In this document: positions 13,998-24,321 of the stretch, piece after piece | How positions within the stretch are numbered: position 1 is the first letter of the stretch | Layout of the letters: every line of letters begins with the position of its first letter | Assembly: GCA_023257625.1 (NCBI GenBank) | Contig: JALRBW010000020.1 | Span: forward strand, 1 to 35,731 | Direction of reading: 5' to 3' | Source: Flavobacteriaceae bacterium | GTDB lineage: Bacteria > Bacteroidota > Bacteroidia > Flavobacteriales > Flavobacteriaceae | DNA length: 35,731 nucleotides | Program-made: the position numbers and the translations under genes | Notes under the pieces: model-generated | Database searches by the model: none | What the model saw: the letters and a program-made list of their open reading frames with translations, nothing else | What the model was told of the DNA's origin: nothing

Positions 13998-15281
13998 CTA
14001 TTCTCTTAAAGGTTTAATTTTATCTCGAATAAGATCGAGTCTTAGGTTGCCAATACTTCCAATATGAGTATGTTGAACATTTCGATTCGGAATATAATCT
14101 CCTTCTTCTATCGCTTTACCTAATTCCCTGTAAGCCTCTCGAAAAGGCTTTCCATTAAGAACGGATGCATTTAATGTATCAACACTAAACAAGCTATCAT
14201 ATTTTTTTTGATCAGTAATATTAGGTGTTACTTTAAGTTTGGGTAAACTAAATAAAAGAAGATCTATACAGGCCTTAACTTCTTGAATAGCTTCAATGAT
14301 AGGTCCTTTAGTCAACTGCAATTCTCTGTGGTATCCACTTGGTAAATTGGTTGTCAACATTGCCAATTGGTTAGGAAGGGCTTGGAGTAGATTTCCTTTA
14401 CCTCTAATTAATTCAAAAACATCTGGATTTTTTTTGTGTGGCATTATACTTGAACCTGTTGTTAAATCATCAGGGAAGGAAATAAAATTGAAATCTTGTC
14501 CCATATATAAACAAATGTCCATACTTAGCTTTGCTAAACTGCTCCCAATACTTGCTAATGCCATGGCAGTACTTTTTTCAAGTTTTCCACGACTGATTTG
14601 TGCGGCAACAGCATTTACTTTTAGGTCTTTAAAATTCATTAATTTGGTTGTAAAAGCACGATCAATTGGAAAGGCACTGCCATATCCAGCAGCACTTCCT
14701 AAAGGATTTTGATCGGCTATTTTTTGAGCCGCCTCAAGGAAAAAAAGATCGTCAATTAAAATTTCAGCGTAGGCCGACAACCATAATCCAACTGATGATG
14801 GCATTGCCACCTGCAAATGGGTATATCCAGGAAGTAAATCAGATTGGTGTTTTTCAGCTAAAACCATTAAGGTATCAAATAGTGTAATTATTTGATTTTT
14901 TAATTCTTTTATTTCATGTTTGAGGTAAAGGTGAAGAGCTACCAAAACTTGGTCATTTCTTGAGCGAGCGGTATGAATTTTCTTTCCTATATCGCCTAAC
15001 TGTTTTGTAAGTTCATGTTCAATTTTTGAGTGCATGTCTTCAAATTCTTCATCTATACTAAATCTACCTTCAATAGCTTGCTTTTTTAAATCGGTTAACA
15101 CTGCACATAATTGATCTGCTTCTATTTGTGAAAGCAACCCTATTTTACTTAGCATTTGAGCATGAGCTATTGATGCCTCACAATCGTATTGGGCCAAAAC
15201 TAAATCATAATCACGGTCCTTTCCTACCGTAAAAACATCTACTTTTTCGTGTGCAGTTGCTCCTTTTTGCCAAAGTTTCAT
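13998..15281 (-). CDS. argH: Argininosuccinate lyase
   Basis: A 427-residue enzyme splitting argininosuccinate into arginine and fumarate, the final step. The fumarase/lyase superfamily signature GSSIMPHKKNPD is near residue 278, with the mobile-loop serine of the GSS. HTARSRNDQV (about 93-102) and LPGYTHLQVAMPSS (about 145-158, containing the catalytic His-region of the superfamily) are also present. At 427 residues it is slightly shorter than the usual 450-465, mainly at the C-terminus. It is last in the arginine operon, one base after argE, and followed by a strong terminator. Confidence 0.96.
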   Translation of the reverse strand: MKLWQKGATAHEKVDVFTVGKDRDYDLVLAQYDCEASIAHAQMLSKIGLLSQIEADQLCAVLTDLKKQAIEGRFSIDEEFEDMHSKIEHELTKQLGDIGKKIHTARSRNDQVLVALHLYLKHEIKELKNQIITLFDTLMVLAEKHQSDLLPGYTHLQVAMPSSVGLWLSAYAEILIDDLFFLEAAQKIADQNPLGSAAGYGSAFPIDRAFTTKLMNFKDLKVNAVAAQISRGKLEKSTAMALASIGSSLAKLSMDICLYMGQDFNFISFPDDLTTGSSIMPHKKNPDVFELIRGKGNLLQALPNQLAMLTTNLPSGYHRELQLTKGPIIEAIQEVKACIDLLLFSLPKLKVTPNITDQKKYDSLFSVDTLNASVLNGKPFREAYRELGKAIEEGDYIPNRNVQHTHIGSIGNLRLDLIRDKIKPLRE

Positions 15282-15282
15282 G

Positions 15283-16329
15283 TTATAATAGTTTAGTTAA
15301 TAGATTAATATACAACGTAATTCCTTCCTCTATTTCATTTACATAAATAAATTCATCGGCTGTATGTGAACGAGGGGAATCTCCAGGACCCATTTTTAAT
15401 GAGGGGCATGACAGGGCAGCTTGATCAGAAAGGGTAGGCGATCCATAGGTTTTTTTACCCAAAGCAATCCCTGCTTGAACTAACGGATGATTTACTGCAA
15501 TATACGAACTTTCTAATCGTAGCGAGCGCGCTTTAACTTCACAGGGTAAAGCGTTTTGGATAATTGTTTCAATTTCTGTATTGGTATAGCAATCATTTAC
15601 TCGAACATCCAATACGAGTTTCACTTCAGCGGGAATGATGTTGTGTTGACTTCCGGCGTTTACTTGAGTCAAGGTAACCTTTACGGGCCCAAGTAAATCG
15701 GATATTTTTTCAAAGTGTAATTTCTCTAAAGACTCGAAAATTGAATTTATTTTCAAAATAGGATTGTCAAAATTGGGATGTGCTGCATGGCTTGCAGTTC
15801 CCTTTAGTGTAAGATCAAAAACAACAAGTCCTTTTTCAGCAATGGCTAATTCCATTTGAGTAGGCTCTCCAACTATTGCCACATCAATTTTTGGAAGTAA
15901 AGGTAAAAGTCCTCGTAAGCTATTTTCACCGGCTGTTTCTTCTTCACCAGTGGCAGCCATTACTAAATTATATTTAGGATTAGGATGGGCATAAAAATGA
16001 GTAAAAACACTTAGTAAACTTACAAGCGAACCACCAGCATCATTACTCCCCAATCCATATAATTTTCCATTTTCAATATCTGGTGAAAAGGGATTTCGAG
16101 TATAGGCTTGGTTAGGTTTTACTGTATCGTGGTGTGAATTTAGTAAAAGTGTGGGTCGTAAAGGATCAAAGTGTTTATTGGTAGCCCAAACGTTATTGTG
16201 TTGACGTTGAAAGGGTATGTTATGTGTCCCAAACCACGCTTCAATTCGATTGGCGGTTTTGTCTTCATTTCCTGAAAATGATTCTAATCGAATTAAATCT
16301 TGTAAAAGGGTAAGGGCGTTTTGTATCAT
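15283..16329 (-). CDS. argE: M20 family deacylase, N-acetylornithine/N-acylcitrulline deacetylase (ArgE-type)
   Basis: A 348-residue zinc-dependent M20 peptidase-family enzyme. Metal-site features are NSHHDTV (His66, Asp68), GSNDAGGSL (about residue 94), GEEETAGENS (about 128-137) and GEPTQME. In a pathway whose transcarbamylase acts on acylated ornithine, the deacylase removes the acyl group from N-acylcitrulline rather than from acetylornithine. Whether the group is acetyl or succinyl is not fixed here; see the ArgF' entry. Its ATG shares one base with the argB stop. DapE is the main alternative within the family, but context strongly favours ArgE. Confidence 0.88.
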   Translation of the reverse strand: MIQNALTLLQDLIRLESFSGNEDKTANRIEAWFGTHNIPFQRQHNNVWATNKHFDPLRPTLLLNSHHDTVKPNQAYTRNPFSPDIENGKLYGLGSNDAGGSLVSLLSVFTHFYAHPNPKYNLVMAATGEEETAGENSLRGLLPLLPKIDVAIVGEPTQMELAIAEKGLVVFDLTLKGTASHAAHPNFDNPILKINSIFESLEKLHFEKISDLLGPVKVTLTQVNAGSQHNIIPAEVKLVLDVRVNDCYTNTEIETIIQNALPCEVKARSLRLESSYIAVNHPLVQAGIALGKKTYGSPTLSDQAALSCPSLKMGPGDSPRSHTADEFIYVNEIEEGITLYINLLTKLL

Positions 16330-17102
16330 TATATTTCAATTTGGGTGAAGGGAAGTTGGCCTTTAAGCATATCAGCATTACCTATAAAAACTTTAGATAC
16401 TCCTTTTGAAAGGGCATCAAAACAATTTTTTAGTTTGGGAAGCATTCCCGAATGTATTTTTTGTTCTTTAAGGAGTTGCTGGTAGAGAAGAGAATTGATT
16501 TTCAACAGCACAGACTCATCATCTTCAACTTTTTCCAAAACTCCTTTTTTTTCAAAACAATAAAGTAACTCAACCTCAAAATCAGAAGCTAAAGCTTGGG
16601 CTAGTGAAGAAGCTACAGTATCTGCATTGGTATTTAGTAATTGTCCAGATCCATCATGCGTAATAGCACAAAATACGGGAGTAACTCCTGCCTGTAGAAG
16701 TATTTTAATAATATCGGTATTGACTTGGGTAATATCACCTACAAAGCCAAAATCTATGGGTTTAACAGGTCTTTTAGAAGCAACTATAGAATTACCATCT
16801 GCCCCAGTAAAGCCTAAAGCATTGCATCCTAAGTATTGTAATTGAGCAATAATAGATTTATTGATTTTTCCACCGTAAACCATAGTAATTAAATCAAGGG
16901 TTGCGTGATCGGTGATCCTTCGTCCATCAATGATATTAACAGGAATATTCAATTGATTTGCTAACTGGCTGGCTTCTTTACCGCCTCCATGTACTAAAAG
17001 ATTATACCCATTTAAAAGAGAAAAATCCATTAGAAATGACGAAAGCGCAGATTGGTTCTCTATAACATTACCCCCTATTTTAATAATGCGGAGTTTATCC
17101 AT
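16329..17102 (-). CDS. argB: Acetylglutamate kinase
   Basis: A 257-residue amino-acid kinase family member that phosphorylates N-acylglutamate. It starts DKLRIIKIGGNVIEN (phosphate-binding Lys and Gly-Gly, residues 2-16), has LVHGGGKEASQLANQL (about 36-51) and ITHDGSGQLLNTNADTVAS near 168-186, which binds ATP and metal. It lacks the N-terminal helix associated with arginine-inhibited hexameric kinases, so direct feedback inhibition by arginine at this enzyme is not indicated. The ATG lies within the argF' end, overlapping by eight bases. Confidence 0.93.
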   Translation of the reverse strand: MDKLRIIKIGGNVIENQSALSSFLMDFSLLNGYNLLVHGGGKEASQLANQLNIPVNIIDGRRITDHATLDLITMVYGGKINKSIIAQLQYLGCNALGFTGADGNSIVASKRPVKPIDFGFVGDITQVNTDIIKILLQAGVTPVFCAITHDGSGQLLNTNADTVASSLAQALASDFEVELLYCFEKKGVLEKVEDDESVLLKINSLLYQQLLKEQKIHSGMLPKLKNCFDALSKGVSKVFIGNADMLKGQLPFTQIEI

Positions 17103-18042
17103 TTTGCAACAGTTTTTTTAATACCCATTGTGCTGCATAAGTTCGGTTATTAGCTTGCTCAATAACCAAGGAATTTGGATGATCTAACACACCATCAGCT
17201 ACCACTATGTTTCGTCTTACAGGTAAACAGTGCATAAACATTGCATCATTGGTATGTTTCATTTTTTCTGATGTTAGCATCCATTCATCATCTGTTCTCA
17301 ATATTTTCCCGTATTCTGTATAAGAGCACCAATTTTTTGCATAAACAAAGTCAGCTCCTTCCAAGGCCTCTTCTTGATTATATACCAGAGGTGTGTTGCC
17401 AGTGATGGCAGCATTTAATTGATAACCCTCAGGCTGGGCAATAACAAAATCAGCCTCAAGATTTTTTACCATTCGGACAAAAGAATTTGCCACAGCATGA
17501 GGAAGGGCTTTTGGGTGTGGTGCCCAGGTCAACACTATTTTTGGCCGTTTTTTGGTGGAATGCTCTTTAATTGTGATCGCATCTGCAAAGGCTTGTAAAG
17601 GATGTGCAGTTGCACTTTCCATATTAATTACTGGTATAGACGCATACTCAGCAAATTTATTTAGAACTTCTTCACCTTCATCTTTCACTTTATCATTTAA
17701 GGAAGCAAAAGCTCGAATGGCAACCATATCACAATATTTAGAAACCACAGCTGCAGCCTCTTTGATGTGTTCTGATCGTAATCCGTTCATTTTCGTACCA
17801 TTTTCAAATTCTAAAGCCCACGCTTCATTTGAAAAATTCATAACCATTGTATGAATCCCTAAATGTTGCGCAGCTTTTTGAGTACTAAGGCGGGTACGTA
17901 AACTTGGATTAAAAAATAACATACCCAACGTTTTATGACGCCCTAAATTTTCATTTGCAAATGGATTTTTCTTCAAAGCCTGAGCTTCGGCAACGGCATC
18001 TTGAAAATGAGTAATATCGTCTAAGGTAAGAAAATGCTTCAT
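17095..18042 (-). CDS. argF': N-acylornithine carbamoyltransferase (acetyl- or succinyl-ornithine type)
   Basis: A 315-residue transcarbamylase that makes N-acylcitrulline from carbamoyl phosphate and acylated ornithine. The carbamoyl-phosphate loop is NPSLRTR (45-51), then HPLQ (147-150) and HCLPVRRN near the C-terminus. Trp75, Arg110, His147 and Lys236 sit at the numbers I recall for the Bacteroides fragilis succinylornithine enzyme, so alignment is nearly gap-free. It lacks the ordinary ornithine-binding DxxxSMG loop arrangement, hence ArgF' and not ArgF. The residue known to decide acetyl versus succinyl specificity (Pro90 in B. fragilis, Glu92 in Xanthomonas) is Ser90 here. Its ATGA overlaps the argD stop. 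Confidence 0.92.
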   Translation of the reverse strand: MKHFLTLDDITHFQDAVAEAQALKKNPFANENLGRHKTLGMLFFNPSLRTRLSTQKAAQHLGIHTMVMNFSNEAWALEFENGTKMNGLRSEHIKEAAAVVSKYCDMVAIRAFASLNDKVKDEGEEVLNKFAEYASIPVINMESATAHPLQAFADAITIKEHSTKKRPKIVLTWAPHPKALPHAVANSFVRMVKNLEADFVIAQPEGYQLNAAITGNTPLVYNQEEALEGADFVYAKNWCSYTEYGKILRTDDEWMLTSEKMKHTNDAMFMHCLPVRRNIVVADGVLDHPNSLVIEQANNRTYAAQWVLKKLLQNG

Positions 18043-19184
18043 GAAGGTTGAATGTTTTGTTCTAGTGCCTTTTTTAACGCATCAAAAAAGAAATCAATAT
18101 GGTGTTTTTGAACAGTTAAAGGGGGTAAAATTCGAATAAGTTTTTTATTACTACTTCCTCCAGTAAAAATGTGATGATCGTAAATTAAAGATTTTCTCAA
18201 AGTACCAACTTCAAAATCAAATTCAATACCGAGCATTAAGCCTCGCCCTTTTACATTTCTAATTGCAGGTTGCTTTTCAGCCAATTCTCTAAAATAGAAC
18301 TCCATCTTTTTAGCATGTTCTTGAAGATTTTCTTGTTGTAACACATCGAGAACTGCGAGAGACGCGCGGCATGCTAAATGATTACCGCCAAAGGTGGTAC
18401 CCAGCATACCATGTTGTGCATTGATGCTAGGATGAACTAGAATTCCTCCAATAGGGAATCCATTACCCATCCCTTTTGCCATTGTGATAATATGAGGTTG
18501 AATGGGATAATGTTGATATGCAAAAAAAGTACCTGTACGACCAAAACCAGCTTGGACTTCGTCAGCAATTAGGCAAGTGCCTGTGGCATTACATTCTTGT
18601 TCCAAAGCGAGAACAAAAGCTTCATCGGGTTGATCAAGTCCACCCACACCTTGTATGGCTTCAAAAATTACGGAACAATAAGTTTTTGTAGCCAATGCAG
18701 TTTTTAGCGCTTCTGTATCATTAAAAGCGATAAAATCTACCTCGTGTTGAGCATTTAAAGGCGCTGAAATAACTTTATTGTCAGTTACTGCAACTGCGGC
18801 AGAAGTTCTACCATGAAAAGATTTATGAAATGCTAATACCTTTTTACGTTGTGTATGAAAAGAAGCTAATTTCAATGCATTTTCTATAGCTTCTGCTCCA
18901 GAGTTACATAAAAAAAGGGCATAAGAATGTAAACACGATTGTGCACCTATGGCATCGGCTAATTTATTTTGAAGTGGATTTTGAATAGCATTAGAATAAA
19001 ATCCAATTTTATTCAATTGGTCAGATATTGAATTTAAATAGTGAGGATGTGCATGACCAATAGAAATCACAGCATGCCCTCCGTAAAGGTCTAGGTATTC
19101 TGTCCCATGGTCATCATATACATAAACATCTTTCGCGCGAACTGGAGTCACTTCATAAAGAGGATATACATCAAATAGTTTCAT
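18039..19184 (-). CDS. argD: Acetylornithine aminotransferase (class III)
   Basis: A 381-residue PLP enzyme interconverting N-acyl-glutamate semialdehyde and N-acylornithine, with glutamate as amino donor. Visible are the phosphate-binding CNSGAEAIENALKLA (about 94-108), the PLP-ring Asp in LIADEVQAGFGRTG (about 199-212) and the Schiff-base lysine in ITMAKGMGNGFPIGG (near residue 235). It begins immediately after the proC stop with no gap. Being next to proC, an additional ornithine aminotransferase activity feeding pyrroline-5-carboxylate is conceivable, but the arginine context makes ArgD the primary role. Confidence 0.94.
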   Translation of the reverse strand: MKLFDVYPLYEVTPVRAKDVYVYDDHGTEYLDLYGGHAVISIGHAHPHYLNSISDQLNKIGFYSNAIQNPLQNKLADAIGAQSCLHSYALFLCNSGAEAIENALKLASFHTQRKKVLAFHKSFHGRTSAAVAVTDNKVISAPLNAQHEVDFIAFNDTEALKTALATKTYCSVIFEAIQGVGGLDQPDEAFVLALEQECNATGTCLIADEVQAGFGRTGTFFAYQHYPIQPHIITMAKGMGNGFPIGGILVHPSINAQHGMLGTTFGGNHLACRASLAVLDVLQQENLQEHAKKMEFYFRELAEKQPAIRNVKGRGLMLGIEFDFEVGTLRKSLIYDHHIFTGGSSNKKLIRILPPLTVQKHHIDFFFDALKKALEQNIQPS

Positions 19185-19979
19185 TTATTGTTTGGCAATT
19201 TCGTTAATCTTATCAAAAGAAGCGGTAAGTCCTCGTATTAATGAAGAACTAAGTCCTTGATGTTCCATTTCATTGAGCCCTGTAATGGTACACCCTTTGG
19301 GTGTAGTCACACGATCAATTTCTTCTTCAGGATGCGTTCCTGATTCAATGAGTAAACTGGCGGCTCCCATAGCAGTATGCATAGACATTTTAAGTGCAAT
19401 TTCTGCATCAAACCCCATTTGTACTCCTCCTTGGGTGGTAGCTCTAATTAAACGCATCCAAAAAGCAATACCGCTTGCACAGAGTACAGTTGCGGCTCGC
19501 ATATGGGTCTCTCCAATTACTAGGGTAGTTCCTAAACCATTAAAAATCGCTTCAGCAATAGGAAGTCTTTTTGCTCCAACAGTATTATGGCACAAACAAG
19601 TCATTGATTTGCCTACTGAAATAGCTGTATTGGGCATGGCACGAATAATGGGAATATCGGTACCAATACTTTTTTCAATACGCTCAATAAAAAATCCAGT
19701 GATAGTTGAAATGATAACGTGTTTTTCATTTAAATCAGGCTGAATTTCAAATAATATTTTTTCAAATTGACCGGGCTGTACGGCAAAAATTAAAATATCT
19801 GAATTTTGAACCGCCTCCCTGTTATTAGAGGTAATCGTTACTTTTTTATATTCTCCATAAGATGAAATAGAAGCAATGTTTCTCTTTGTTAAATAGAGCG
19901 TTGTATAGGTGTTGTTTATGATCAATCCCTTTGCAATACTTAAACCAAGGTTTCCAGATCCGATTATAGCAATTTTCAT
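19185..19979 (-). CDS. proC: Pyrroline-5-carboxylate reductase
   Basis: A 264-residue NAD(P)H enzyme forming proline from pyrroline-5-carboxylate. The N-terminal Rossmann motif is GSGNLGLSIAKGL (7-19), followed by FAVQPGQFEKIL and RAMPNTAISVGKSMTCL. The C-terminal dimer domain contains TTPKGCTITGLNEME, the proline/P5C-binding stretch. It sits between argC (9-base gap) and argD (no gap), so it is co-transcribed with arginine genes, an arrangement known in flavobacteria. This would tie proline production to the arginine signal. Confidence 0.93.
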   Translation of the reverse strand: MKIAIIGSGNLGLSIAKGLIINNTYTTLYLTKRNIASISSYGEYKKVTITSNNREAVQNSDILIFAVQPGQFEKILFEIQPDLNEKHVIISTITGFFIERIEKSIGTDIPIIRAMPNTAISVGKSMTCLCHNTVGAKRLPIAEAIFNGLGTTLVIGETHMRAATVLCASGIAFWMRLIRATTQGGVQMGFDAEIALKMSMHTAMGAASLLIESGTHPEEEIDRVTTPKGCTITGLNEMEHQGLSSSLIRGLTASFDKINEIAKQ

Positions 19980-19988
19980 AATGTAAGT

Positions 19989-20960
19989 TTAATATATATT
20001 GGCTTTTAATTCAATTCCGAGCGTTTCTTCCCAACCCATAATAATATTAGTGTTTTGTACAGCTTGCCCTGAGGCTCCTTTAATTAAATTATCAATTACA
20101 CTGGTTATTAATATCACATCTTCATGCTTATGAAGATGAAGAAAACATGTATTAGTATTGATTACATTTTTTAAACTAATTTCTTGTTTAGAAATCCATG
20201 TAAATGGATGAGATGCATAATAATCTGTATACATTTCTATGGCATCCTCAAGGGTTCCCTCAAAAGGGGTATAAACAGTTGCAAAAATACCTCGGGTAAA
20301 AGCTCCACGCTGCGGCATAAAATATAATTTTGGAGCAGAATCCAATTGAGATAGGGTTTGTTTAATTTCACCCAAATGTTGATGTGTAAAGGGTTTATAC
20401 CAAGAAAGGTTATTGTTTCGCCAACTGAAGTGCGAAGTTTCACTAAGACCCACTCCTGCCCCTGTGCTTCCTGTTGTGGCATTAATATGTAGATCACCTT
20501 TAATTTTATGAGCAGCTGCCAGCGGAAGTAAAGCCAGTTGAATTGCTGTAGCAAAGCAACCTGGATTAGCTATTGAAGTTGCCTTTTCAATTTTATCCCG
20601 TTGTAATTCAGGAAGTCCATAAATAAATTTTCTTTCATTTGAAGAAGCATCTTCTTGTAATCGAAAGTCGTTGCCTAAATCAATAATCACGGTTTCAGAA
20701 GAAAAGGTATGAGCATCTAAAAACGCACTTGATTTTCCGTGACCTAAACACAAATAAACAACATCGACATCAGTTACAATAGTATCTGTAAAGTTCAAAT
20801 TTACCCTACCCAAGATATCCAAATGTGTTTGTGTTATTGGTTGACCTGCTCTGGTAGTACTGTACACAAATGCCAATTCAAGGGCTGGGTGATTAATGAT
20901 TAGACGAATCAATTCTCCTCCAGTATAGCCTGATCCCCCAATAATTCCTACTTTTTTCAT
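19989..20960 (-). CDS. argC: N-acetyl-gamma-glutamyl-phosphate reductase
   Basis: A 323-residue NADPH-dependent enzyme reducing N-acylglutamyl phosphate to the semialdehyde. The Rossmann start KKVGIIGGSGYTGGELIRLI (2-21) and the active-site cysteine in ANPGCFATAIQLALLPL (near residue 133) are clear. PQRGAFTRGIFATVY (about 216-230) carries the conserved substrate-binding region. Start codon shares ATGA with the argG stop. Confidence 0.96.
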   Translation of the reverse strand: MKKVGIIGGSGYTGGELIRLIINHPALELAFVYSTTRAGQPITQTHLDILGRVNLNFTDTIVTDVDVVYLCLGHGKSSAFLDAHTFSSETVIIDLGNDFRLQEDASSNERKFIYGLPELQRDKIEKATSIANPGCFATAIQLALLPLAAAHKIKGDLHINATTGSTGAGVGLSETSHFSWRNNNLSWYKPFTHQHLGEIKQTLSQLDSAPKLYFMPQRGAFTRGIFATVYTPFEGTLEDAIEMYTDYYASHPFTWISKQEISLKNVINTNTCFLHLHKHEDVILITSVIDNLIKGASGQAVQNTNIIMGWEETLGIELKANIY

Positions 20961-22150
20961 TCAGATGAGTTTAAATGGTGGTAAATTTTTGTAGCATTTC
21001 CTGTCAACTTAATAAAGCCCTTAGCTTCAGTTGCGGTCCATCCTTTGTTCATTTCGCCATAACTTCCAAATTCAACTTTCATTAAATCAAAAGGCGATTC
21101 AATTCCTTGTAATTCAAATCTATAGGGGTGGAGATGAACAAAAACTTTACCGCTTACACGGGTTTGACTGCTATATAAAAAAGCTTCTAAGTCACGCATC
21201 ACTGGATCTAAGTAATGGCCCTCATGAAGAAGCATACCATAAAAGTTAGCTATTTGTTCTTTTTGATACTGTTGCCATTTACTTAAGGTATGCTTTTCTA
21301 ATAAATGATGTGCTTTTAAAATAATTAAAGGAGCCGCTGCTTCAAAACCAACACGTCCTTTAATTCCTATAATGGTATCACCTACATGAATATCTCTACC
21401 TATAGCATATTGTTTGGCTATAGATTGTATTTCTTGAATTAAGGCTACAGGCGTACTTTCAAGTTCATTTACACCTACCAACTCACCTTTTTTGAAGGTT
21501 AGAGTAAGAGTTTCTGAGCCTTTTTTTATTAGAGGGCTAGGATAGGCTGTTTCTGGAAGTGATTTATTTGAGGTCAGAGTTTCGGCACCCCCTACACTAG
21601 TTCCCCAAAGACCTTGATTGATAGAGTATTGTGCCTTAGTCCAAGAAATATCAATGCCTTGCTCTTTCAAATAGGTAATTTCTTGTTCTCTAGAAAGTTG
21701 ATGGTCTCGAATTAAGGTAATAATTTCAATTTCAGGGGCTAAGATTTGAAAAATCATATCGAACCGTACTTGGTCATTTCCTGCCCCAGTACTTCCATGC
21801 GCAATTAATTTTGCACCAATAGATTTTGCATATTGGACAATTTCAATGGCTTGAATCACTCGTTCAGCACTTACTGATAGGGGATAAGTGTTATTTTTTA
21901 GTACGTTTCCAAAAATCAAATACTTCACAATTTTTTGGTAAAATGACTCTAAAGCATTGATATTTTGATAGGTAAAGGCACCCATTTGATAAGCTTTCTC
22001 TTCAATAGTTTTTATTTCTTCATTTGAAAACCCCCCAGTGTTGATACTTACTGCATGAACTTCATATCCTTCTAGCGACAGTCTTTTTAGGGAATAAGAG
22101 GTGTCAAGACCACCGCTGTAAGCCAATACTAATTTTTGTTTTTTCATCAT
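20957..22150 (-). CDS. argG: Argininosuccinate synthase
   Basis: A 397-residue ATP-pyrophosphatase that joins citrulline and aspartate with ATP cleavage to AMP. The P-loop-like AYSGGLDTSYSL is at residues 10-21 and HGSTGAGNDQVRF lies near 118-130. The length is normal. Two ATG codons are adjacent at the start (22148-22150 and 22145-22147); the first forms an ATGA overlap with the preceding acetyltransferase stop, so translation is probably coupled. It is the second gene of the operon. Confidence 0.96.
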   Translation of the reverse strand: MMKKQKLVLAYSGGLDTSYSLKRLSLEGYEVHAVSINTGGFSNEEIKTIEEKAYQMGAFTYQNINALESFYQKIVKYLIFGNVLKNNTYPLSVSAERVIQAIEIVQYAKSIGAKLIAHGSTGAGNDQVRFDMIFQILAPEIEIITLIRDHQLSREQEITYLKEQGIDISWTKAQYSINQGLWGTSVGGAETLTSNKSLPETAYPSPLIKKGSETLTLTFKKGELVGVNELESTPVALIQEIQSIAKQYAIGRDIHVGDTIIGIKGRVGFEAAAPLIILKAHHLLEKHTLSKWQQYQKEQIANFYGMLLHEGHYLDPVMRDLEAFLYSSQTRVSGKVFVHLHPYRFELQGIESPFDLMKVEFGSYGEMNKGWTATEAKGFIKLTGNATKIYHHLNSSE

Positions 22151-22755
22151 TCTTTCTTTTTAAGAAGAATTGCTTCTTTAATTTTTTTCAATCGTTCTTG
22201 AACCTGATGGTTAAATTTCTTTTTTTCTGTTTTTTTATTTGGATCATATAGCATCCCTGTACACAAACACATTTGTCGTTCGGTTCGAGTTAAAATATCA
22301 TAATTCTTACAGGTCTGACAACCTTTCCAAAATTCAGGGTCATCGGTAAGTTCAGAAAAGTGAACTGGTTTATATCCCAACTCATAATTTATTTTCATAA
22401 CGGCCATACCCGTTGTTATTCCAAAGATTTTTGCAGTTGGAAATTTTTCTAAGGAAAGATCAAATACCCCTTTTTTGATTTGTTTTGCTAAACCTTGAGC
22501 TCTGTAATCAGGGGCAACTATTAGACCAGAATGAGCCACATATTTTCCATGCCCCCACACCTCAATGTAGCAAAATCCAGCAAATTTATCCCCATCAATG
22601 GCAATCACAGCATTACCATTAGAAATTTTTGTAGCAATATATTCAGGGGTTCTTCTTGCAATTCCTGTGCCTCTAATTTTTGCCGATTCGTCTATACACT
22701 GACTAATTTCTTTGGCAAAGGTTACATGTTCCGCTTTAGCGCGTAATACTTTCAT
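22147..22755 (-). CDS. GNAT family N-acetyltransferase, probable N-acetylglutamate synthase of the arginine operon
   Basis: A 202-residue GNAT protein. The acetyl-CoA-binding segment is LIVAPDYRAQGLAKQI (78-93), with RAQGLA standing for the R/QxxGxG/A motif. Being the first gene of a complete arginine operon that otherwise has no argA or argJ, it probably acylates glutamate; this is inferred from context and from annotation practice for flavobacterial homologues. Unusually it carries a cysteine cluster after the GNAT core: Cys146-x2-Cys149 and Cys163-x-Cys165, which could bind a metal. The C-terminus is very lysine-rich (174-202). It has no amino-acid-kinase domain, so is unlike classical ArgA. 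Confidence 0.82.
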   Translation of the reverse strand: MKVLRAKAEHVTFAKEISQCIDESAKIRGTGIARRTPEYIATKISNGNAVIAIDGDKFAGFCYIEVWGHGKYVAHSGLIVAPDYRAQGLAKQIKKGVFDLSLEKFPTAKIFGITTGMAVMKINYELGYKPVHFSELTDDPEFWKGCQTCKNYDILTRTERQMCLCTGMLYDPNKKTEKKKFNHQVQERLKKIKEAILLKKKE

Positions 22756-22796: not shown

Positions 22797-22844
22797 GGAG
22801 AAGGGCTCACCATACTCCATACAAAATTACACCCCAAAGGGGCG
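22797..22844 (-). promoter_or_regulatory. Candidate arginine attenuator: two hairpins in the operon leader
   Basis: On the minus strand CGCCCC-TTT-GGGGTG (22844-22830) forms a 6-bp hairpin. Its 5' arm begins exactly at the last Arg codon of the leader peptide. Downstream, GGAGTATGG-tgag-CCCTTCTCC (22818-22797) can form a second, imperfect hairpin, followed by a pyrimidine-rich stretch and a run of eight T. The GGGG of the first hairpin could instead pair with CCC or CTCCC of the second, giving mutually exclusive folds. The geometry fits ribosome-controlled attenuation; the second hairpin is not a textbook terminator because the T8 lies about 13 bases beyond it. Confidence 0.5.
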
Positions 22845-22913
22845 ACGACGTGGACTACGCAAAGGTGTAGATGCGAAGTTGGAAAGAAGATTAAACGTTG
22901 TCGCTTGTAACAT
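22827..22913 (-). CDS. Arg-rich leader peptide of the arginine operon
   Basis: A 28-codon ORF from ATG (22913-22911) to TAA, ending 71 bases before the acetyltransferase start. It begins MLQATTFNLLSNF and ends TPLRSPRRRPFGV, with Arg codons at positions 19, 22, 23 and 24 (CGT, CGT, CGT, CGC). Four arginines in six residues in front of an arginine operon is the hallmark of a leader peptide that senses charged tRNA-Arg. It overlaps the first leader hairpin. A longer ORF exists in another frame here but has no such logic. I do not recall this specific leader from the literature. Confidence 0.65.
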   Translation of the reverse strand: MLQATTFNLLSNFASTPLRSPRRRPFGV

Positions 22914-22920
22914 AATGGCA

Positions 22921-22951
22921 CAAAATTCTATTTTTTTTTTATACTGAACAA
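22921..22951 (-). promoter_or_regulatory. Candidate promoter of the arginine operon
   Basis: On the minus strand a TTG (22951-22949) and, after 18 bases, TAGAATTTTG (22930-22921) resemble the Bacteroidetes TTG / TAnnTTTG promoter with two extra bases inside the -7 box. It lies directly upstream of the leader peptide, at the right place for an operon promoter. The match is imperfect. Confidence 0.4.
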
Positions 22952-23019: not shown

Positions 23020-24321
23020 GTGGATCAACAGTTGATAACTTATTTTAAGCAAAAAGCAAAAGAGTTAAAACACCAGAAGATACTGCTAGCCCACAGTGGT
23101 GGAGTAGACAGTTCCGTTTTGGCGAACTTATTTATTAGCCATAAATTATCCTTTGGAGTAGCCCATTGTAATTTCCAACTTCGTGGAGTTGAAAGTGAAG
23201 ACGGGGCACGTTTTGTTGAAGATTGGTGTAGGCATCATAAGGTCCCATTTTATTCGGTTCGTTTTACTCTTGATGGTTATCCACAGAAAAACACTCAACT
23301 CGCTGCACGTCAATTAAGGTATCAATGGTTTGAAGAATTAAAAAGTGTTTTTGGTTTTACCGTAGTATGTACCGCACACCATTTAAACGATCAATTGGAA
23401 ACTTTTTTAATGCACACTTTTAGAGGTACTGGGCTAGATGGTATGGTAGGGATTCCTGAAATGGATTCTCTTCAGCGTCCACTTTTAGACATAACAAAAG
23501 CGCAACTTTTGAGTTTTGCCCAAAATCGAAAGTTGGAATGGAGAGAAGACAGTTCCAATGCCACCACGCAATACACCCGTAATGCCCTTCGTCACACTGT
23601 TATTCCGCCTCTTTTAGAAGCCATTCCAAACGGACTTGAAGGATTTTCCAAAACGATTAATCACCTTCAAGAGAGTCAAGCATTTCAAGCATCTGCTTTA
23701 TATACATTGCACTCCACACTTTTTGTGAAACATAAGGAAGGTTTTCAAATTGCTATTCAAGAACTGATGACTTTGCCTCATTTGTTGTTTTGTCTTCACC
23801 ATTGGTTTTCCCCTTATGGGTTTAAGGCGACCGAGGTTCTGAAATTATGTAAGACATCGAGTGGTAAAAGATGTGTTTCCACCTCCCATCAGCTTACAAG
23901 AGAGCGAACACATTTGTGGTTATCACCCCTTAAGAAAACTGAAACAAACAGCATCTCAATCACTTTGGAAGCGGGTTTTATTGCCACTCCTATTCAACTT
24001 TCTTGGAAAGCCTTAGACCGTATGCCCAAAAGCCCGTTAAACGCAGATCAAGCCGCTTTAAACAACAAGCTGTTAAATTCTCCTTTGTTTCTTCGTAAAA
24101 TGGAGAAAGGAGACTATTTTTACCCCACCGGAATGACGGGTAAAAAATTGCTAAGTAAATATTTTAAAGATCAAAAATATACTTCATTTGAAAAGGAGCA
24201 ACAGTGGCTGTTATGTACTCAAGAGGCTGTAGTTTGGGTAGTAGGTCAACGTTGTGATCGTCGTTTTGCCGCTGATAAGAAAACTGAGGATATTTTACTC
24301 TTAACGTTAAGTGAAAAATGA
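23020..24321 (+). CDS. tilS: tRNA(Ile)-lysidine synthase
   Basis: A 433-residue N-type ATP-pyrophosphatase that converts C34 of the CAU anticodon of tRNA-Ile to lysidine so that it reads AUA. The PP-loop SGGVDS is at 26-31. Other family features are VAHCNFQLRGVESEDG (about 46-61), TAHHLNDQLETFLMH (about 125-139), RPLLDITKAQL and DSSNATTQYTRNALRH. The C-terminal domain ends with KKLLSKYFKDQK. Translation starts at GTG; no ATG lies upstream in frame close enough and this start puts the PP-loop at the usual distance from the N-terminus. Overlaps dsbD by four bases. Confidence 0.94.
   Translation: MDQQLITYFKQKAKELKHQKILLAHSGGVDSSVLANLFISHKLSFGVAHCNFQLRGVESEDGARFVEDWCRHHKVPFYSVRFTLDGYPQKNTQLAARQLRYQWFEELKSVFGFTVVCTAHHLNDQLETFLMHTFRGTGLDGMVGIPEMDSLQRPLLDITKAQLLSFAQNRKLEWREDSSNATTQYTRNALRHTVIPPLLEAIPNGLEGFSKTINHLQESQAFQASALYTLHSTLFVKHKEGFQIAIQELMTLPHLLFCLHHWFSPYGFKATEVLKLCKTSSGKRCVSTSHQLTRERTHLWLSPLKKTETNSISITLEAGFIATPIQLSWKALDRMPKSPLNADQAALNNKLLNSPLFLRKMEKGDYFYPTGMTGKKLLSKYFKDQKYTSFEKEQQWLLCTQEAVVWVVGQRCDRRFAADKKTEDILLLTLSEK

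What the first reader, a model, noticed from the sequence alone, without database searches (positions are those of the whole stretch)
22797..22913. Arg-rich leader peptide and overlapping hairpins in front of the arginine operon
A 28-codon minus-strand ORF ends in RSPRRRPFGV with Arg codons at 19 and 22-24. A 6-bp GC hairpin (22830-22844) starts exactly at codon 24, and its GGGG arm could pair alternatively with the CCC/CTCCC arm of a second hairpin (22797-22818) that precedes T-rich sequence. A ribosome waiting for Arg-tRNA at codons 22-24 would block the first hairpin. This is the logic of transcription attenuation known from his/trp/leu operons of Proteobacteria, here for arginine in a Bacteroidetes, where ArgR-type repression would be the default expectation. 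Sequence features are seen; the mechanism is inferred.
Basis: partly seen in the sequence, partly recalled or inferred. Interest (0 to 1): 0.78.

Follow-up and report, generated by a model that had tools for sequence, protein, structure and literature searches.

The report
Arginine leader peptide before arginine operon
A tiny arginine-rich peptide gene with conserved RNA hairpins sits before the arginine-making genes of many Bacteroidia bacteria that lack the usual arginine repressor, and it probably lets the ribosome itself report whether arginine is running out.

Summary
In 79 of 79 Flavobacteriaceae loci an in-frame ATG opens a short ORF ending in Arg-Pro codons (other frames 3 and 0). A two-hairpin element follows; its covariance model hits one place per genome and is found in 33 of 35 family genomes that have the first gene (argA2) outside one large genus. 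All 30 hit loci examined lie before argA2-argG. Arg-rich leaders continue across the class: 39 of 62 loci against 4.5 in shuffles, and 0 of 6 where an ArgR gene sits there instead. ArgR is nearly absent from the order (1 of 346, borderline). H2 carries a UNNGY pentaloop (73 of 79; 11 of 33 class leaders). Best reading: ribosome stalling at Arg codons gates H1 and controls the operon; whether the output is transcription or translation is undetermined. New variant of a known kind.

The parts
22921..22930 (-). promoter-like TAgaatTTTG just upstream of the leader ATG (resembles the Bacteroidetes -7 element TAnnTTTG, recalled)
   Evidence: sequence; TTTG lies 4-17 nt before the leader ATG in 77 of 79 loci, exact TAnnTTTG in 16 of these 77, not in the window; no sigma-70 type promoter found; transcription start not measured
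22827..22913 (-). leader ORF, 28 codons, MLQATTFNLLSNFASTPLRSPRRRPFGV*
   Evidence: in-frame ATG ORF in 79 of 79 family loci; other frames 3 and 0
22854..22879 (-). H0: hairpin inside the ORF, upstream of the Arg run
   Evidence: z -2.85 for the window copy; structure peak at -24 relative to the last Arg codon, arm matching across 41 diverged loci z -4.4 with one choice of limits and -2.4 with another
22842..22850 (-). control codons CGT CGT CGC (Arg 22-24); Arg 19 is at 22857-22859
22830..22844 (-). H1: CGCCCC-TTT-GGGGTG, spans Arg24-Pro25 up to the stop codon
   Evidence: four of five pairs invariant in 54 aligned sequences; arms at this place match across the class z -4.66
22797..22818 (-). 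H2: GGAGTATGG-TGAGC-CCTTCTCC with UNNGY pentaloop (loop 22805-22809)
   Evidence: (covariation); UNNGY loop in 73 of 79 family loci and in other orders
22147..22755 (-). first gene of the operon: GNAT acetyltransferase, candidate N-acetylglutamate synthase ArgA2
   Evidence: one Pfam GNAT model over its cut-off, another under; ArgA2 naming from a passage of PMC9026213
20957..22150 (-). argG, argininosuccinate synthase
13998..20960 (-). rest of the operon: argC, proC-like, argD, argF, argB, argE, argH
   Evidence: ORFs; argC, argF (carbamoyltransferase) and the argE-like peptidase checked by Pfam, the other names from my reading of the sequences

Best explanation
This is the 5' leader of the argA2-argG-argC... 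operon and works as a ribosome-based arginine gauge. A short leader ORF is translated. Its last codons are Arg (usually two or three in a row), and the final Arg-Pro codons and the stop lie in or at the edge of a small hairpin, H1. When charged Arg-tRNA is scarce, the ribosome waits on the Arg codons and keeps H1 from folding; when arginine is plentiful it finishes, leaves, and H1 folds beside the constitutive hairpin H2, and operon expression falls. Shown by comparison: a conserved ORF kept in frame, Arg codons, three hairpins, association with this operon, near-absence of ArgR from the order. Inferred: stalling, the direction of control, and the output. Because no exchange of pairing partners is detectable and no intrinsic terminator is present in this family, the output is probably not the his/trp switch. 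I think premature transcription stop (pausing or Rho) somewhat more likely than control of translation, with H2 and its UNNGY loop as a recognition or pause signal.
For: In-frame ATG ORF in 79 of 79 loci against 3 and 0 in the other frames. Arg at the last codon 79 of 79, previous codons 68 and 58 of 79, with synonymous CGT/CGC variation. Element found upstream of argA2, by a loose pattern, in 107 of 107 loci with enough upstream sequence, 3 short ones dropped, many of the 107 close relatives or duplicates. Model R1: one hit per genome in 33 of 346 order genomes; 30 of 30 fetched loci lie before argA2-argG; 33 of 35 argA2-bearing family genomes outside genus g21. Genus g21 lacks R1 but has Arg-bearing short ORFs; 18 of 25 loci contain SPEVR near the end (no shuffle control). 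Class-wide Arg-rich leaders 39 of 62 against shuffle mean 4.5 (maximum 8 in 30 sets), reverse strand 5. ArgR gene in place of a leader in 6 of 6 loci. Structure peaks at the stop codon and at about +33 over 39 hand-picked class leaders.
Against: No expression data. The stall and the direction of control are not tested. H1 does not covary inside the family. Of eight loci from other families of the order, two (L143, L144) show no leader, and 23 of 62 class loci had fewer than 3 Arg in the last 12 residues (a few of these still look like leaders, others do not). In genus g21 the best-scoring ORF of L159 is not at the usual place. C-over-G excess in the H2-to-start spacer is reached by 39% of control upstream regions, so nothing points to a Rho site by composition.
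Confidence: 0.7

Rival explanations
1. Classical his/trp-type attenuator: ribosome position chooses between an antiterminator (H1 arm with H2 arm) and an intrinsic terminator.
For: Leader peptide with control codons. In the window's clade H1 is followed by a T-rich stretch and scores as terminator-like (25 of 79 family loci by a loose rule against 9.1 in shuffles, 24 of the 25 being H1). Two class loci, L220 and L222, have 11-12 bp terminators with T-tracts, and 17 of 39 class leaders have a loosely terminator-like site against 4.8 in shuffles, so some lineages may work this way.
Against: No H1-H2 co-matching across the class (z 0.01) while hairpin controls score -4.66 and -3.66. Inside the family z 0.79, but the H2-arm control failed there. 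Strong terminators in 1 of 79 family arg leaders and 6 of 39 class arg leaders against 21 of 30 class his leaders by the same rule.
Confidence: 0.12
2. Translational control: ribosome stalling changes access to the argA2 start region or re-initiation, or mRNA stability, not transcription.
For: Strong intrinsic terminator in only 1 of 79. Short distance from leader stop to argA2 start, 64-95 nt in 79 loci. Two known arginine-sensing leader peptides act at least partly this way: Salmonella speF orf34 (abstract of PMC6386406) and S. aureus rbfL (passages of PMC13009471).
Against: No conserved pairing of H1 or H2 with the start region (z 1.62 and -1.24); no clear structure peak in the start region (strongest combined z there -2.1).
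Confidence: 0.25
3. Arrest peptide: the nascent chain ending RRRP senses free arginine in the exit tunnel (like TnaC or the fungal arginine attenuator peptide, both recalled) instead of codon starvation.
For: Pro after the last Arg in 79 of 79 family loci; C-termini such as SRRRPYMPRA* and FRRPILPRA* recur in other orders.
Against: The Pro codon is also forced by the H1 stem. C-termini differ widely (RRP*, PFFPRR*, RRRRYFFRV*, SPEVRML..*), and what they share is Arg codons, not one peptide.
Confidence: 0.12
4. A small functional protein or a structured RNA with a chance ORF.
For: The middle of the peptide varies freely while the RNA hairpins stay, so most of the peptide looks unimportant.
Against: Frame strictly kept, synonymous Arg codon changes, Arg enrichment class-wide with unrelated peptide sequences.
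Confidence: 0.03

Closest known systems
His operon leader attenuators (checked here in the same class and the same genome)
   Same: Short ORF with a run of codons for the end product, hairpins between it and the first biosynthetic gene
   Different: A strong GC hairpin plus T-tract lies before hisG in 21 of 30 class loci and in all three family genomes looked at, the window's own included (ACCCGTTTGA-ATAA-TCAAACGGGT then T's); the arg leader of the window's family lacks it, and no alternative pairing is detectable
Staphylococcus aureus rbfL (PMC13009471, passages only)
   Same: A leader peptide with Arg codons that senses arginine limitation by ribosome pausing
   Different: Other phylum and gene (biofilm regulator rbf, not arginine synthesis); pausing blocks the next ribosome-binding site and lowers expression at low arginine; two Arg codons, AGA and AGG, rather than a terminal CGY run; no hairpin element described in the passages
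Salmonella speF leader orf34 (PMC6386406, abstract and outline seen)
   Same: Upstream ORF with two consecutive Arg codons; ribosome pausing at low arginine changes leader RNA folding
   Different: Controls ornithine decarboxylase, not arginine synthesis; acts through Rho, RBS unfolding and RNase G; other phylum; orf34 not compared by sequence here
Leader-peptide attenuation reported in Flavobacterium psychrophilum (PMC9723704, passages and section 19 read)
   Same: Same family; leader-peptide attenuation proposed upstream of amino-acid operons; structured 5' elements before pheA and hisG named
Pseudomonas aeruginosa carAB leader (passages of PMC4997734)
   Same: A leader peptide before an arginine-related operon, with possible attenuation
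   Different: The passages tie the possible attenuation to pyrimidines and describe arginine control as transcriptional; other phylum; no relation tested
Fungal arginine attenuator peptide (recalled)
   Same: Upstream peptide controls an arginine gene in response to arginine
   Different: Eukaryotic, peptide-sequence-specific arrest by free arginine

Membership tests
Classical leader-peptide transcription attenuator (his/trp type) | leader ORF, conserved in frame, with clustered codons of the pathway's amino acid | tested here: met
Classical leader-peptide transcription attenuator (his/trp type) | intrinsic terminator between leader ORF and first gene | tested here: not met
   strong one in 1 of 79 family loci; his control 21 of 30; weak terminator-like H1 in 24 of 79
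Classical leader-peptide transcription attenuator (his/trp type) | mutually exclusive antiterminator pairing | tested here: not met
   H1 vs H2 z 0.01 over 39 class and family leaders with hairpin controls detected; family-only test z 0.79 but with a failed H2 control
Classical leader-peptide transcription attenuator (his/trp type) | premature transcript ends that respond to the amino acid | not testable with these tools
   needs RNA data
Leader-peptide (ribosome-mediated) cis-regulation, broad sense | leader ORF conserved in frame and tied to one pathway | tested here: met
   79 of 79 in frame; 30 of 30 R1 loci before argA2-argG
Leader-peptide (ribosome-mediated) cis-regulation, broad sense | ribosome stalls at control codons on starvation | not testable with these tools
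   needs ribosome profiling or toeprinting
ArgR-controlled operon | ArgR encoded in the genome | tested here: not met
   0 in own genome (91% complete); 1 of 346 in the order, borderline
Rfam families (riboswitches, T-box, known leaders, Flavo-1) | match to a covariance model | tested here: not met
   only a tRNA in the window at gathering score; no match at E up to 1 in 7 loci

The most novel reading that the evidence does not exclude
The arg leader is a class-wide device of Bacteroidia that pairs a ribosome-stalling Arg peptide with a terminator-free output: a stop-codon hairpin (H1) that the ribosome opens or frees, next to a hairpin with a UNNGY pentaloop (mostly GG-UGNGY-CC in Flavobacteriaceae, mostly CC-UNYGY-GG elsewhere) read by RNA polymerase, Rho or an unknown RNA-binding factor, without alternative base pairing. 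It takes the place of the ArgR gene that other members of the class carry at the same spot.
Probability: 0.35. Interest if true: 0.8.

Novelty: new variant of a known kind. Interest (0 to 1): 0.62.

Why it matters
Arginine synthesis is the textbook case of control by the ArgR repressor (general knowledge). Here an order of bacteria appears to do almost without ArgR and, in many members, to use ribosome-based sensing; at the same chromosomal spot six class genomes carry ArgR and others the leader, a possible exchange of a protein regulator for a leader peptide that can be followed in sequence. The UNNGY hairpin without a terminator gives a concrete handle on how these bacteria turn ribosome stalling into a change in expression. 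The natural control in the same cell is the his leader, which has an ordinary terminator.

Tried and rejected
Alternative pairing between H1 and H2, between H0 and H1 or H2, between the early ORF and H1, and between H1 or H2 and the argA2 start region: duplex energies of own pairs against swapped pairs gave no signal, although the minimum-energy fold of the window alone pairs early ORF with the Arg codons. In the family-only test the H2-arm control also gave nothing (z 0.23), so the class test carries the weight. A pairing CGCC (H1) with GGUG (H2 loop), which I first liked, falls with the same test.

Rho site by composition: spacer C minus G 0.13 against 0.08 in 211 control upstream regions, 39% of which are as high; no support.

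H2 as intrinsic terminator: rejected for the family (1 of 79, L089). H1 as a weak terminator stays possible, chiefly in the window's clade (15 of the 24 H1 hits have the 6-pair stem of that clade).

T-box or known riboswitch: no Rfam match. A second ORF (ATGGAGTATGGTGAG...) over H2: dropped, because its GNG codon varies at the middle base and its ATG is often missing.

UNNGY motif: I saw it in the same leaders on which I then counted it, so its enrichment is post hoc. The same strict scan also found UNNGY-type pentaloops in 8 of 26 His-bearing leader candidates from 30 his loci; in 7 of the 8 it is a stretch of the terminator's own 3' arm. The loop is therefore not exclusive to arg leaders.

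Genus g21: its leaders were scored without a shuffle control.

Papers: the listings showed no title or abstract start on an arginine leader peptide in Bacteroidetes; I opened eight papers in all, as passages, one section, or abstract with outline (PMC9723704, PMC4833913, PMC7366714, PMC4997734, PMC2965389, PMC6386406, PMC9026213, PMC13009471), not the rest of the lists. Only openly licensed PMC papers are held; the attenuation survey of Lopatovskaya et al. 2010 (seen only as a reference) and that of Vitreschak et al. (recalled) were not readable.

Full report
WHAT IS THERE. On the minus strand, its stop 71 nt upstream of the first of nine arginine-operon ORFs, lies a 28-codon ORF, MLQATTFNLLSNFASTPLRSPRRRPFGV*, at 22913-22827. 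The first gene is a GNAT acetyltransferase. A paper on gut bacteria names such a gene in the arginine operon of Bacteroidetes ArgA2, a candidate N-acetylglutamate synthase (passage of PMC9026213); I use that name by position and family, without a test of function. Then follow argG, argC and the rest. H1 (22844-22830) covers the last Arg codon, the Pro codon and everything up to the stop; H2 (22818-22797) follows after 11 nt.

IS IT MORE THAN CHANCE. In the window alone, H1 and a further hairpin, H0, stand out from shuffles (both z -2.85); H2 does not (z -0.55), nor does the leader as a whole (z -0.75). Comparison decides it. I fetched 80 named relatives with the acetyltransferase and 30 unnamed loci, the window's own included. 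Of these 110, three had too little upstream sequence and were dropped; the other 107 of 107 match a loose pattern for H1 plus H2, many of them close relatives or duplicates. On 79 loci (window copy plus the named set), a reading frame with an ATG at least 15 codons upstream is open through the Arg codons in 79, against 3 and 0 in the other two frames. The last Arg codon is CGC in 79 of 79 and the next is Pro in 79 of 79; the preceding two codons are Arg in 68 and 58, mixing CGT and CGC. TTTG stands 4-17 nt before the ATG in 77 of 79, and an exact TAnnTTTG, the Bacteroidetes -7 element as I recall it, in 16 of these 77, so the transcript may begin almost at the leader ATG; this is inference.

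THE RNA ELEMENT. An alignment of 54 diverse sequences gives H2 strong covariation: 69 cells with a change on both sides against 25.6 in shuffles, and 95.3% of cells paired against at most 62% for slid versions. H1 (CGCCC/GGGUG) has four invariant pairs and one that is only kept or lost, so it says nothing there. H0, inside the ORF just before the Arg run, shows a structure peak and arm matching over 41 diverged loci (z -4.4 with one choice of limits, -2.4 with another). The H2 loop is UNNGY in 73 of 79 family loci. The covariance model R1 finds 33 of 346 genomes of the order, each once (with stricter filters and 15 candidates scored per genome, so weak cases may be missed); all 30 loci fetched, the window's own among them, sit directly before acetyltransferase and argG. 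Cross-tabulated with a search for the acetyltransferase in the 346 genomes drawn the same way: 33 of 35 bearers in the window's family outside genus g21 have R1 (G074 and G215 do not), 0 of 34 bearers of g21, 0 of 125 in other families. Genus g21 (unnamed; I think Flavobacterium, not verified) has a different leader: 18 of 25 loci have an ORF with SPEVR near its end, such as MNKTSLHITSLSRTNRPSTSPEVRILSL*, and 25 of 25 have some ATG ORF with at least 2 Arg in the last 20 residues, a weak criterion without a control. Of eight loci from other families of the order, six show an Arg-bearing short ORF (for example RRRPVRV*, RRRRPVRR*, RFFRRPLWVLN*) and two, L143 and L144, show none. The stretch is not in Rfam.

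CLASS-WIDE. In 197 genomes of the class, 75 match the acetyltransferase, two of them weakly; I fetched the upstream region of 68 of the 75. Nine genomes have a clear ArgR and three more a borderline match; six of the nine also have the acetyltransferase, with ArgR just upstream on the same strand. Of the other 62 loci, 39 have an ATG ORF with 3 or more Arg in its last 12 residues, against a mean of 4.5 and a maximum of 8 in 30 sets of shuffles, and 5 on the reverse strand; 0 of the 6 ArgR loci do. The other 23 of 62 do not reach that mark; some still look like leaders (SRQNFTPRI*, KVPFFPRR*), others show nothing. The peptides differ (SRRRPYMPRA*, RRRRYFFRV*, SRVPFFPRR*, RRPHGGIC*, ARRPFSRRPARV*); what they share is Arg near the end. 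Over 39 leaders that I picked by hand from these, near-duplicates included, local folding is stronger than shuffles around the stop codon (combined z -6.2), again at +30 to +36 (-6.9 and -8.2) and near +72 to +84 (-5.7 to -3.2). So a hairpin at the stop codon and a second about 33 nt on are a common plan. Among 27 pentaloops closed by two G-C pairs in that region of 33 non-redundant leaders, 12 are UNNGY (next commonest pattern 3), in 11 of the 33 leaders. I had noticed the motif in the same sequences, so this count is post hoc, and 8 of 26 his leader candidates also hold such a loop, 7 of them within the terminator arm. The UNNGY loop, closed the other way round (GG-UGNGY-CC), is the core of H2 in the window's family.

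NOT A CLASSICAL ATTENUATOR. If H1 and H2 exchanged partners, own H1-H2 pairs should match better than swapped ones. They do not: z 0.01 over 39 diverse leaders (33 class, 6 family), while the H1 arms (-4.66), H2 arms (-3.66) and the third hairpin (-4.26) are detected by the same test. Inside the family z is 0.79, but there the H2-arm control also failed (z 0.23), so the class test carries the weight. By one rule (stem of 7 or more pairs plus T-rich tail), 1 of 79 family arg leaders has a strong terminator, 6 of 39 class leaders, and 21 of 30 class his leaders. The window's own genome has a textbook his leader, MKFKTTHQHHFYSDSNEL with ACCCGTTTGAATAATCAAACGGGT and a long T-run, and so do the two other family genomes looked at. 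So these bacteria do use intrinsic terminators in leaders, just not here. A looser rule finds terminator-like sites in 17 of 39 class leaders (shuffles 4.8) and 25 of 79 family loci (9.1), 24 of the 25 being H1 itself; L220 and L222 have 11-12 bp terminators, so some lineages may have the classical form.

HOW IT LIKELY WORKS. A ribosome waiting on Arg codons 22-24 covers the 5' arm of H1 and probably most of it (ribosome footprint from general knowledge). When it can finish, it leaves at the stop within or at the end of H1, and H1 folds beside H2. Low arginine means H1 open and operon on; high arginine means H1 closed and operon off. The direction follows from pathway logic and is not shown. 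Output candidates: transcription pausing or Rho, or translation or stability. Composition gives no hint of a Rho site, and no pairing with the start region is conserved. I lean to transcription without proof.

ArgR. PF01316 was not found in the window's genome (91% complete) and in 1 of 346 genomes of the order, at 26.9 bits in a 312-codon frame, probably not an ArgR.

PRIOR ART. A transcriptome paper on F. psychrophilum reports clues of leader-peptide attenuation before amino-acid operons and names structured elements before pheA and hisG (PMC9723704, section 19); its supplements could not be read. A B. thetaiotaomicron map mentions sORFs reminiscent of leader peptides, none for arginine in the passages (PMC7366714). 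A survey of leader genes covers Bacteroidetes without the word arginine in its main text (PMC4833913, passages). The premature-terminator survey PMC2965389 has neither Bacteroid nor arginine in its main text. Arginine-sensing leader peptides are known elsewhere: Salmonella speF orf34 (abstract) and S. aureus rbfL, which acts on translation (passages). No arginine leader in Bacteroidetes showed in the listings; the library holds only part of the literature and most listed papers were not opened.

VERDICT. New variant of a known kind; interest 0.62.

Noticed in passing
G000:C72:31927-32469 and upstream (L272): The same genome has a textbook his attenuator: leader MKFKTTHQHHFYSDSNEL and a 10-bp terminator with a long T-run before hisG; short ORFs with 3 or more His precede hisG in 26 of 30 class loci, a few of them doubtful.
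   Followed up: partly
0.6-Mb genomes of family f16, genus g51: In these small genomes the acetyltransferase matches listed lie in open frames of about 590-650 codons, as if ArgA2 were fused to another gene (argG would be the obvious one; not checked).
   Followed up: no
window 19185-19979: A pyrroline-5-carboxylate-reductase-like gene (proC, named from my reading) sits inside the arginine operon between argC and argD.
   Followed up: no
window 23020-24321: A divergent ORF that looks like tilS (my reading) begins about 107 nt from the leader ATG, so the arg promoter region is shared with a divergent gene.
   Followed up: no
L220 and L222: Two class-level arg leaders carry clear intrinsic terminators (11-12 bp stem plus T-tract), suggesting that output modules differ between lineages.
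   Followed up: partly
L149-L173 (genus g21): A separate arg leader family with a conserved peptide (..SR.N.P.TSPEVR.L.., SPEVR in 18 of 25) and apparently its own hairpins; structure not worked out.
   Followed up: partly
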